DNA of 64,000 nucleotides from the NCBI RefSeq assembly GCF_002216795.1, contig NZ_CP022316.1, forward strand, positions 2,571,205 through 2,635,204. Reading direction: 5' to 3'. Positions within the stretch are counted from its first letter, which is position 1; the number at the start of each line of letters is the position of its first letter. A program made the position numbers and the translations under genes. Shown piece by piece: positions 50,333-52,381 of this stretch. The stretch comes from Brachybacterium avium. Its GTDB lineage: Bacteria > Actinomycetota > Actinomycetes > Actinomycetales > Dermabacteraceae. The notes under the pieces were generated by a model. That model had not been told where the DNA came from. It saw nothing but the letters and a program-made list of their open reading frames with translations, and did no database searches.

Positions 50333-50397
50333 GCTCCGCACACTACGCGCTGATCCTGAGCCACCGCATTACGCTGGGCCCAGTGTGAGGCTTGCTG

Positions 50398-50580
50398 GTG
50401 CCGCGGATGTCGCGGTGGTTGGATCCTTTCCATCCGGTGATTGGCTCTTACGCTGGCTGCCGTTCTTCGTTGAACTGGCCTTCATGGGTATTGCCGTCGC
50501 CGGGTGGGAAGGACCGGCCGGCGTGACTTGATAGGAGCGTGCAGCTGCCCCACTGAGGTTTGTCCGCCGACCGGCCCGAC
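50398..50580 (+). ncRNA. Candidate IS110 bridge RNA with target- and donor-binding loops
   Basis: By hand folding there is a 5' stem-loop (CCGCG 50401-50405 with CGCGG 50411-50415) and a small hairpin (50421-50435). The target loop has stem GGTGATTGGC (50436-50445) with GCCGTCGCC (50493-50501), 13-nt open sides, and an apical stem 50459-50465/50472-50479. The donor loop has stem 50511-50523 with 50565-50577 plus GAC/GTC. The target-loop left side TTACGCTGG (50448-50456) equals the left flank (50369-50377). Its right side TCATGGGTAT (50482-50491) is complementary to the right flank (51719-51728). Donor-loop ATAGGAG (50531-50537) equals the right end at 51712-51718. CACTG (50551-50555) is complementary to the left end at 50381-50385. 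Confidence 0.75.
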
Positions 50581-50618
50581 CGTTCGACCCCCACTCGAAT
50601 ACAAGGGAGGCAGTGACC

Positions 50619-51710
50619 ATGGTGGTCCTGATCGGCGCTGACGTCCACAAGAACTCACACACCTTCGTCGCGGTCGACGCGGCGGGCAAGCAGATCGGGC
50701 AGATCACTGTCCGCGCGACTCATAGCGGTCACGAGAAGGCCTACCGATGGGCCAGGAAGTCCTTCATCGAGCAGGACCGCCAGTGGGGGGTGGAGGACTG
50801 TCGCCACCTCACCGGTCTGCTCGAACGCGATCTCCTTGCCCATGGAGAGCCCGTGGTCAGGGTGCCGGCGAAGCTGATGGCACGCCAACGCGCCACAGCG
50901 CGCACTCGCGGGAAGTCCGACCCGATCGATGCTCTCGCCGTCGCGCGGGCGATGGCCCGCGAGGACGATCTGCCGACCGCGTTCACCGATGAGCAGGCAC
51001 GAGAGGTCAAGCTGGTCCTGGCGCGTCGTGAGGACCTGGTCGCGGAGCGGACCCGGGTGATCAACCGCCTGCGCTGGCACCTGCACGAGCTCGACCCCGA
51101 AGTCGACCCGGCACCACGCGCGCTGACCCATCGACCGGCTCAGGAACGAGTGCGGGAGCTGGTCGAGGCGAGCGAGGGGATCGTCGCGGAGATCGCGGGC
51201 ATGGTCCTGGCCGACCTCGAACGGCTCTGCTCCTCGATCAGCGAGCTGGATGCGCGGCTGCGTGTCATGGTCCGGGAGGTGGAGCCGGTGCTGTTGGAGA
51301 TCCCCGGCTGCGCGGAGCTGTCGGCCGCGAAGATCCTCGCCGAGACCGCCGGGATCGAACGGTTCGCGAACGAGGGGAAGTACGCGATGTTCGCCGGCTG
51401 CGCTCCGATCCCGGTCTGGTCAGGCAAGACCGAGGGGAGAGTCCGTCTGAACAGGGGCGGGAATCGTCAGTTGAATTGCGCGATCCACCGCATCGCCCTC
51501 ACTCAAGTCCGTCTCGAAGGACCCGGTAAGGAGTACTACGACCGGCTCCGCGAACAGGGCAAGACCGTGATGGAAGCCCTCCGCTGCTTGAAGAGCGCGA
51601 TCGCCCGCCGCATCTGGCGCGCTCTCACCCGTGCCCACGCCGAAGCCCTCGCCACCACCCCGATCCCACTGAACCCCACCTCAACGACTTGCGTACCGCA
51701 AGCCGCTTGA
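50619..51710 (+). CDS. IS110-family DEDD transposase/recombinase
   Basis: 363 residues from ATG 50619 (GGGAGG with 8-base spacing; GTG at 50613 is too close to it). The N-terminal RuvC-like DEDD domain has acidic residues D8 (GADVHKN), E59 (VEDCRHL), D101 and D104 (KSDPIDALAVARA), the spacing typical of the family. A coiled-coil linker follows. The C-terminal Tnp domain starts LLEIPGCAELSAAKILAETAG and includes FAGCAPIPVWSGKTEGRVRLNRGGNRQL, whose Ser-Gly is the position of the catalytic serine. No frameshift or truncation: it looks active. Its left non-coding end should supply the guide RNA. Confidence 0.93.
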   Translation: MVVLIGADVHKNSHTFVAVDAAGKQIGQITVRATHSGHEKAYRWARKSFIEQDRQWGVEDCRHLTGLLERDLLAHGEPVVRVPAKLMARQRATARTRGKSDPIDALAVARAMAREDDLPTAFTDEQAREVKLVLARREDLVAERTRVINRLRWHLHELDPEVDPAPRALTHRPAQERVRELVEASEGIVAEIAGMVLADLERLCSSISELDARLRVMVREVEPVLLEIPGCAELSAAKILAETAGIERFANEGKYAMFAGCAPIPVWSGKTEGRVRLNRGGNRQLNCAIHRIALTQVRLEGPGKEYYDRLREQGKTVMEALRCLKSAIARRIWRALTRAHAEALATTPIPLNPTSTTCVPQAA

Positions 51711-51712
51711 CA
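51707..51712 (+). promoter_or_regulatory. TTGACA at the right end of the IS110 element (junction -35)
   Basis: An exact -35 consensus faces out of the element. In the linear insertion it has no fitting -10 before the next gene. In a circularised element it would point into the left end, 17 bases before CTTGCT (50391-50396), and could drive the bridge RNA and the transposase. Confidence 0.4.
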
Positions 51713-51724
51713 TAGGAGATACCC

Positions 51725-52381
51725 ATGACCATCCCCCGGCAGATCGGACCCGAGACCGGCCCGCGCACGGCCCTGCCCGACTACAGCCGCAGCAGCGCCA
51801 CCGTCGAGCGCATGGTCGCCGCGCTGCACCAGGCCCCCGGGAGGAAGCGCGGGGCCGCGGGGTCCGTGCGCGCTCTTCTTCCCGCCGCGGCCGTGCGGGA
51901 CACGATGCTGCGGGCGATCATCTCCGCCGTGCTGCTCGGCGGCGTGCTGATCGCCGGTGTCGTGATCGCGCTGCTGCTCGTCTCTCTCCCGGAGGGGCGC
52001 TCCCCGGGGATCGGGCTGCTGATGCTGCTGCTCGCACTGGGCGCGCTGGCGGTGATCCTGCTGCTGCTCGGTCTCCGCTTCGGGATCGTCGCGCTGGGCA
52101 CGGCCCGCTCCCGCGTCGAGATCTCCGAGGAGGGGCTGCACGTGATCGGAGGCATCGGCTCCCGCCGGGTCCCCTGGCGCGACATCGTCGCGGTCGAATC
52201 CCGGGTGGTCCACCCCGTGCACTGGCTCACCGCAGCACTGCGGCTGCGGGATGGCTCCCGCGTGGTGATGCCCGCCTTCGACCGGCACGTGTGGACCTAC
52301 TCCCAGGCATCGGGGCAGGACATTCGCACCCTGCGCATCGAACTGCGCCGGAGGGAGCAGGCCGCCGGTCGCCGCTTCTGA
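51725..52381 (+). CDS. Membrane protein with bacterial PH-like domain
   Basis: 218 residues. A hydrophilic N-terminal ~65 residues precede two helices (about 66-90 and 98-122), then a PH-like beta domain (ARSRVEISEEGLHVIGGIGSRRVPWRDIVAVE). Same layout as the gene at 7876-8379, with the shared pattern RxPWxxIxxVE, so likely paralogues of unknown function. The ATG is now preceded by TAGGAGATACCC, of which the first part belongs to the IS110 end. It may be co-transcribed with the transposase, 14 bases upstream. Confidence 0.78.
   Translation: MTIPRQIGPETGPRTALPDYSRSSATVERMVAALHQAPGRKRGAAGSVRALLPAAAVRDTMLRAIISAVLLGGVLIAGVVIALLLVSLPEGRSPGIGLLMLLLALGALAVILLLLGLRFGIVALGTARSRVEISEEGLHVIGGIGSRRVPWRDIVAVESRVVHPVHWLTAALRLRDGSRVVMPAFDRHVWTYSQASGQDIRTLRIELRRREQAAGRRF

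What the first reader, a model, noticed from the sequence alone, without database searches (positions are those of the whole stretch)
50398..50580. Candidate IS110 bridge RNA whose four guides match both chromosomal flanks and both element ends
The non-coding left end of the IS110 element folds by eye into a 5' stem-loop, then two internal-loop hairpins. Left side of loop one, TTACGCTGG (50448-50456), is identical to the left flank (50369-50377). Right side, TCATGGGTAT (50482-50491), is the exact reverse complement of the right flank ATACCCATGA (51719-51728), with a further U-G pair and CC opposite the GG core. Left side of loop two, ATAGGAG (50531-50537), equals the right end of the element. 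Right side, CACTG plus a bulged A then GG (50551-50558), pairs with the left end, with G-U pairs to the core. Identity on the 5' side and complementarity on the 3' side is the known bridge-RNA logic. I know of no description of this particular element.
Basis: partly seen in the sequence, partly recalled or inferred. Interest (0 to 1): 0.92.

Follow-up and report, generated by a model that had tools for sequence, protein, structure and literature searches.

The report
RNA-guided transposon targets leaderless gene starts
A small bacterial jumping gene carries a guide RNA that reads like the -10 box and start codon of genes whose messages have no leader, so it slips in exactly between promoter and gene; its relatives have changed the guide many times but kept this kind of target.

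Summary
Its anatomy needs correcting, and the corrected version is more interesting. The element (about 50380-51722) is an IS110-group insertion sequence with four copies in its genome. Its left end encodes a covarying two-loop bridge RNA: 53 pairs, 97.5% of cells paired, 22 pairs with changes on both sides.

Empty sites in same-genus genomes show that the target is a leaderless promoter plus start codon: 59 of 59 usable orthologues of three target genes have TANNNT 6-7 nt before the start codon. The left target guide copies this -10 box. Of 60 distinct places examined without selection, 42 have such a guide; all 42 flanks carry TANNNT (40 by script, 2 with duplicated left ends by eye), against 0 of 18 places with other guides. 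Over 15 distinct guides, 44 of 45 variable bases match the flank (shuffled mean 16.6). The right guide reads the start codon.

New variant of a known kind. Capture of the host promoter and donation of a ribosome-binding site are inferred, not shown. IS900 is a published precedent for start-codon targeting.

The parts
50369..50379 (+). Left target half: TTACGCTGG + GC, the -10 box TACGCT of the former leaderless promoter of the gene at 51725
   Evidence: Empty sites in same-genus orthologues; 24 of 24 usable orthologues have TANNNT 6-7 nt before the start codon
50380..51722 (+). IS110-group element, exchange points as inferred; the shared bases CA lie at 50381-50382 and 51724-51725
   Evidence: Four-copy alignment and copies of a relative that differ at the base before C(A/G)TG
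50381..50590 (+). Bridge-RNA region as aligned (A1); structured part about 50400-50581
   Evidence: Consensus structure and pair counts
50400..50416 (+). 5' stem-loop of the bridge RNA
   Evidence: Helix 1, columns mapped by hand to the window
50448..50456 (+). Left target guide TTACGCTGG in loop one
   Evidence: Covaries with the left flank in relatives
50482..50491 (+). Right target guide (TCA/TG, antisense to CATGA) continuing into a stretch antisense to the element's last bases ATAC plus the next C
50531..50537 (+). Left donor guide ATAGGAG in loop two, equal to the right end of the element
   Evidence: invariant in the 22 aligned relatives
50551..50558 (+). Right donor guide; CACTGA is antisense to TCAGTG, the left end of the other copies
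50613..51710 (+). Recombinase gene (ATG start 50619, 363 aa), DEDD_Tnp_IS110 and Transposase_20 domains
51707..51712 (+). TTGACA, possible -35 box in the circle junction (speculative); overlaps the recombinase stop codon 51708-51710
   Evidence: Sequence; conserved in printed right ends
51715..51718 (+). GGAG, Shine-Dalgarno-like, six bases before the host start codon; also part of the donor site
   Evidence: present in relatives that do not sit at gene starts too
51723..51728 (+). Right target half CCATGA with the host start codon ATG at 51725-51727
51725..52381 (+). Host gene (218 aa, bacterial PH domain) whose leaderless promoter was split off by the insertion

Best explanation
This is an IS110-group insertion sequence with a bridge RNA in its left end. 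The 5' side of the target-binding loop carries a copy of the -10 box TANNNT of a leaderless promoter; the 3' side is antisense to the start codon CATG. The circular element is inserted, in one orientation, right next to the start codon of a leaderless gene, and the gap between the two halves of the site may vary. The second loop reads the element's own ends. Shown by sequence: element limits, RNA structure, guide-target covariation, the leaderless look of the empty sites, and GGAG six bases before the start codon in the right junction. Inferred: pairing during recombination; that the captured promoter transcribes bridge RNA and recombinase from the first bases of the element; and that the right end gives the decapitated gene a ribosome-binding site so that it is translated from the longer message.
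For: Four copies at four sites with one guide. Empty sites TANNNT-N6/7-ATG in 59 of 59 usable orthologues, Shine-Dalgarno-like tetramer in 1 of 59. Unselected table: 42 places with a TANNN(T/C) guide; all 42 have TANNNT at the flank (40 by script; L207 and L043 have duplicated left ends and were read at the outer copy); 0 of 18 places with other guides. Background 25 of 8200 shifted windows. Variable bases: 116 of 123 over 41 insertions, 44 of 45 over 15 distinct NNN (shuffled 16.6, 0 of 100,000). At least 17 changes of NNN on the transposase tree. Right guide follows start-codon type. 33 of 34 readable right junctions have an open frame of at least 80 codons beginning at the junction start codon. 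RNA structure.
Against: No experiment. L018 has no start codon at its right junction and matches its guide in only 1 of 3 variable bases; six of 41 insertions miss one or more variable bases. The donor-loop stem is nearly invariant (8 of 11 pairs never vary, none with change on both sides), so covariation supports mainly the target loop. The left guide stops short of the exchange point, unlike IS621. GGAG occurs in relatives that target other sites, so its use by the host gene may be incidental. Only 2 further perfect sites TACGCTGNNNNCATG exist in this genome, against 2 for the reversed control pattern.
Confidence: 0.9

Rival explanations
1. Ordinary bridge-RNA element whose target happens to be a common, harmless motif. 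TANNNT and start codon are kept only because such sites are abundant and insertion there spares coding sequence; there is no promoter capture and no use of GGAG by the host gene.
For: TANNNTGNNNNCATG occurs 99 times in this genome against 13 for the reversed control; GGAG is part of the donor site also in relatives with other targets; relatives do retarget to other sites.
Against: TA...T stayed while NNN changed at least 17 times, which keeps the promoter feature; the element ends lie just where a host transcript would begin and where translation of the host gene would be restored.
Confidence: 0.5
2. The box in the loop is not a guide but an internal promoter of the element that resembles host promoters; the flank matches reflect general -10 consensus only.
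For: TANNNT is the general actinobacterial -10 motif (PMC3160421, PMC3898074; passages).
Against: The consensus says nothing about NNN, yet NNN agrees in 44 of 45 positions over 15 distinct guides; relatives with non-promoter guides also match their flanks (by eye); the box lies in the internal loop of a covarying hairpin.
Confidence: 0.02
3. Chance matches in a GC-rich left end.
For: Single matches of this length do arise in 6-11 of 2000 shuffles.
Against: 0 of 2000 shuffles give both; the match pattern repeats over the relatives.
Confidence: 0.01

Closest known systems
IS621 and other IS110-group bridge RNAs (Durrant et al. 2024, PMC11208160; Hiraizumi et al. 2024, PMC11208158; passages read)
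   Same: Recombinase family; bridge RNA in the left end; 5' stem-loop, target loop and donor loop; [quoted passage not shown] some pairing with the other DNA (handshake) next to the exchange point
   Different: Target is a leaderless promoter plus start codon; the left guide stops short of the exchange point and the gap varies; shared bases are CA, not CT; the handshake-like stretch seems longer (about 4-5 bases against 2)
ISEc21 and IS1111-type seekRNAs (Siddiquee et al. 2024, PMC11187229; passages read)
   Same: Natural redirection of guides between relatives; non-coding region upstream of the gene in the IS110 type
   Different: ISEc21 targets a conserved region of IS3-family transposase genes; in the passages I saw no promoter or start-codon target is described
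IS900 (Conde et al. 2021, PMC8141618; passages read)
   Same: IS110 family; gapped target with a start codon, published motif CATGNNNNNNTCTCCTT
   Different: The other half of the motif reads (my reading) as a Shine-Dalgarno sequence on the opposite strand, not as a -10 box; no bridge RNA was examined for it here

Membership tests
IS110 family | Recombinase with DEDD (RuvC-like) and Transposase_20 domains | tested here: met
   Pfam PF01548 and PF02371 above gathering scores; NCBIfam NF033542 187.8 bits against cut-off 140; sequence match to solved ISCro4 and IS621
IS110 family | Catalytic DEDD residues and nucleophilic serine | tested here: inconclusive
   Candidate motifs by eye at D8, E59, D101/D104 and S268 (positions); only the serine region is well aligned to ISCro4
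IS110 family | No target duplication, no long terminal inverted repeats, directional insertion | tested here: met
   Flanks against empty sites: no bases lost or gained by eye; same orientation relative to the host gene at all four sites; inverted repeats not separately scanned
Bridge-RNA (IS110-group) system | Structured RNA with target and donor loops in the left end | tested here: met
   17 of 394 class genomes hold the model
Bridge-RNA (IS110-group) system | Target-loop guides covary with target flanks | tested here: met
Bridge-RNA (IS110-group) system | Core dinucleotide included in all four guide pairings, as in IS621 | tested here: not met
   Left guides end before the exchange point by a variable gap; in the relatives L254-L257 and L268 the left guide does reach it
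Bridge-RNA (IS110-group) system | RNA expressed, bound by the recombinase and needed for recombination | not testable with these tools
   Needs RNA sequencing and recombination assays
IS1111 group | Guide RNA in the right end and long subterminal inverted repeats | tested here: not met
   The structured RNA is in the left end; the right end reaches only 12 nt past the stop codon; subterminal repeats not scanned

The most novel reading that the evidence does not exclude
RNA-programmed promoter capture: the bridge RNA is held by selection to leaderless promoters because each insertion places the element's first bases at a host transcription start, so that the host promoter transcribes guide RNA and recombinase, while the element's GGAG turns the leaderless host gene into a Shine-Dalgarno gene and keeps it alive. 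The left half of the site is read across a gap of variable length, a recognition mode unlike that of IS621.
Probability: 0.35. Interest if true: 0.87.

Novelty: new variant of a known kind. Interest (0 to 1): 0.74.

Why it matters
It shows natural bridge RNAs aimed at a functional class of site, the transcription and translation start of leaderless genes, with at least 17 natural guide changes that keep that logic. This gives a ready data set for guide rules, mismatch and spacing tolerance and handshake pairing. It offers a testable idea of how a transposon can enter a gene's control region without silencing it. It also points to compact actinobacterial recombinases that insert just upstream of start codons, and suggests testing IS900's known start-codon preference in the same terms.

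Tried and rejected
GG core (reader): rejected. Full 10-nt right target: rejected, ATAC is element. First loop rewritten at each insertion: rejected, four copies share one guide. GGAG as a special adaptation to gene-start targeting: weakened, relatives with other right-hand targets have it too. Phage carriers: no match at E 1e-40. Plasmid relatives exist at under 60% identity in 45 records; not followed. A circle-junction promoter TTGACA-N17-(C/G)AGG(G/C)T is only suggested by conserved columns. The consensus fold pairs part of the left donor guide (helix 7), possibly an alternative pairing.

Selection of rows: the 41 insertions came from 63 loci given. Thirty of these I chose by eye, looking at right ends and left-end type; 33 were the stretches fetched, which cover the genomes hit except the window's own. 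Nine of the 63 gave no landmark (L015, L078, L258, L259, L260, L269, L279, L280, L281), 54 gave rows; three were dropped as repeats of one place (L270, L282, L283), one lacked a left flank (L208), nine have other guides (L254-L257, L265-L267, L268, L278). Because of that choice I repeated the table without selection: 197 loci, 98 without landmarks, one without flank, 60 distinct places, 42 with the guide type, 18 without. The script found the flank box in 40 of 42. The two misses, L207 and L043, have a duplicated left end; at the outer copy they read TAGAGT (guide TAGAGT) and TACCAT (guide TAGCAT). Variable bases exact in 34 of 42 by script. L073 is in the table but not in alignment A1. The tree is a quick one with 11 of 43 inner branches open. 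One search used only orthologues aligned from residue 1 with at least 60 nt upstream and an ATG or GTG start (24, 28 and 7).

Full report
WHAT IS THERE. The gene 50613-51710 encodes a 363-aa protein (from the ATG at 50619) with Pfam DEDD_Tnp_IS110 and Transposase_20 domains and passes NCBIfam's IS110 cut-off. The element occurs four times in the 3.57-Mb genome at 99-100% identity; one copy is frameshifted. The genome lies in the same order as Micrococcaceae bacterium RIT 802: locus L206 of a same-order genome is the same sequence as L016 of that record. The four copies fix the ends: the shared part runs from CAGTGTGAGG to GGAGATACCCATG. Near-identical copies of a relative in one genome (L044, L046, L047, L058) differ at the base before C(A/G)TG at the right (T, A, G, G), so that base comes from the target. 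By analogy the element here is 50380-51722.

EMPTY SITES. Orthologues of the gene right of the window copy were found in 26 of 38 genomes of the genus, its own included. Upstream of the start codon they read, for example, CCGCACTAGGCTGAGTCC-ATGACC, where the window has CCGCATTACGCTGGGC at the left junction and CCATGACC at the right. By eye this gives TACGCT-GGGCCC-ATG, the same six-base spacing, so nothing was lost or duplicated. Over orthologues of three target genes (the window gene, the gene at L003, and that at L107 in a same-genus genome), 59 of 59 usable upstream regions have TANNNT ending 6 or 7 nt before the start codon, and 1 of 59 has a Shine-Dalgarno-like tetramer. This is the published signature of leaderless genes in Actinobacteria (PMC3160421, passages; PMC3898074, passages). 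TANNNTGNNNNCATG occurs 99 times in this genome against 13 for the reversed control.

THE RNA. Twenty-two distinct left ends of relatives, chosen for this left-end type, align over 221 columns and give a consensus of 53 pairs: a 5' stem-loop, a target loop and a donor loop. Of 1159 cells 97.5% pair; 22 pairs show changes on both sides (shuffled mean 9.8, 0 of 500; slid versions 2-5). The target-loop stem carries most of this (11 of 14 pairs); the donor-loop stem hardly varies and says little. A model of the RNA finds it in 17 of 394 genomes of the class, up to six times in one genome.

THE GUIDES. In 41 insertions with a guide of the form NTANNN(T/C), 41 left flanks have TANNNT ending 4 (1), 5 (28), 6 (9), 7 (2) or 8 (1) bases before the CA of the junction. 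The three middle bases agree with the guide in 116 of 123 positions; all three agree in 35 of 41. With one insertion per distinct NNN (15) they agree in 44 of 45, shuffled mean 16.6, 0 of 100,000. Windows further upstream have the box in 25 of 8200. Because 30 of the 63 starting loci had been chosen by eye, I repeated the table on all 197 transposon loci held: 60 distinct places, 42 with this guide type and 18 with others. The box is at the flank in 40 of 42 by script and in the other two when a duplicated left end is read at its outer copy, against 0 of 18. One genome has four insertions with guide TAGATTGG and all four flanks read TAGATTGG (L261-L264). On a quick transposase tree of 53 rows NNN changed at least 17 times and the target class at least 3 times, while T, A and the last T are invariant in the 22 aligned guides.

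On the right, guides with CATG sit at ATG in 21 of 26 and GTG in 5; guides with CACG or CACC at ATG in 1 of 6 and GTG in 5 (Fisher p 0.006; four of the six are copies of one element, and one CATC guide was left out). The same guide continues into four bases antisense to the element's own last four, 33 of 36 positions over nine distinct right guides (shuffled mean 23.2, 6 of 100,000). This resembles the handshake guides of IS621 (PMC11208158, passages), extended. Of 34 promoter-type insertions with a readable right end, 33 have an open frame of at least 80 codons starting at the junction start codon; L018 has none. Six of seven such proteins tested have Pfam domains; the seventh (L003) has none but has relatives in 31 of 38 genomes of the genus, its own included.

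NATURAL RETARGETING. Relatives with the same donor loop have other guides that match other flanks right up to the junction: CAAACCGACT (L254-L257), CCTACGCGTCT (L268), and CAGACACT in L265, with L266 and L267 differing at the third base (by eye). Further groups sit at quite different right-hand sequences. In those three cases the left guide reaches the exchange point, as in IS621, where the core is included in every guide pairing (PMC11208160, passages). In the leaderless-promoter type it stops short, and the gap varies as the natural distance from -10 box to start codon does.

HOW IT PROBABLY WORKS. [quoted passage not shown] exchange follows next to CA. The insertion leaves the host -10 box 4-8 bases before the CA at the element's left end, so host transcription would start about there and run through bridge RNA, recombinase and host gene. 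The right end puts GGAG six bases before the host start codon, just after the recombinase stop codon, so the decapitated leaderless gene would gain a ribosome-binding site. None of these last steps is shown. GGAG is part of the donor site and occurs in relatives that do not sit at gene starts, so a use for the host gene may be incidental.

WHAT IS KNOWN. Bridge RNAs and seekRNAs of the IS110 family are published (PMC11208160, PMC11208158, PMC11187229; passages). 'Start codon' does not occur in the main text of the first and in the third only about curating transposase sequences. IS900 has the published target motif CATGNNNNNNTCTCCTT (PMC8141618, passages), which I read as start codon plus Shine-Dalgarno on the opposite strand. 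The phrase 'IS900 targets translation initiation' occurs once in each of two papers (listing only); I recall it as the title of Doran et al. 1997. Searches for IS110 with leaderless, with start codon and with ribosome binding site, and for bridge RNA with IS110, listed no paper on this theme as far as titles and abstract starts show; the library lacks most subscription papers and all bioRxiv preprints. Durrant et al. show predicted guides for ISAar29, whose name suggests an Arthrobacter host (recalled); the figure is not held and one search found no other paper naming it, so I cannot exclude that it belongs to this clade.

VERDICT. A real bridge RNA with a corrected anatomy. The new point is that its guides, and those of a clade of relatives, read leaderless gene starts.

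Noticed in passing
L003 (G000:C1:1674077-1675413): One of the four copies in the genome has a one-base deletion that splits the recombinase frame.
   Followed up: no
L254-L257, L265-L268: Relatives with the same donor loop but other guides sit at other kinds of site; their guides match those flanks by eye.
   Followed up: partly
L202, L203, L211, L212, L214-L218, L025, L027, L031, L034, L035: A group of relatives shares a right-hand sequence like GGAGCATCG(C/G)(G/C)GA(G/A)CTCGACC, perhaps a conserved coding site in another mobile element.
   Followed up: no
L033, L039, L041, L042, L054 and similar: Another group has a shorter left end and right-hand sequences GGAGC(A/T)A, mostly followed by a G-rich stretch.
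   Followed up: no
L207 and L043 left ends: The outer part of the left end is duplicated in tandem, 24 bases in L207 and about 37 in L043.
   Followed up: no
L018 right junction: The one promoter-type insertion with a readable right end but no start codon there; its guide also fits the left flank poorly, so it may be rearranged.
   Followed up: no
window 51707-51712 with 50387-50392: In the circle the ends would make TTGACA-N17-GAGGCT; A and T at -10 positions 2 and 6 are invariant in the 22 aligned left ends. A possible junction promoter.
   Followed up: no
G000:C1:1555327-1555884: A distant IS110-type sequence (30% identity over part) elsewhere in the genome.
   Followed up: no
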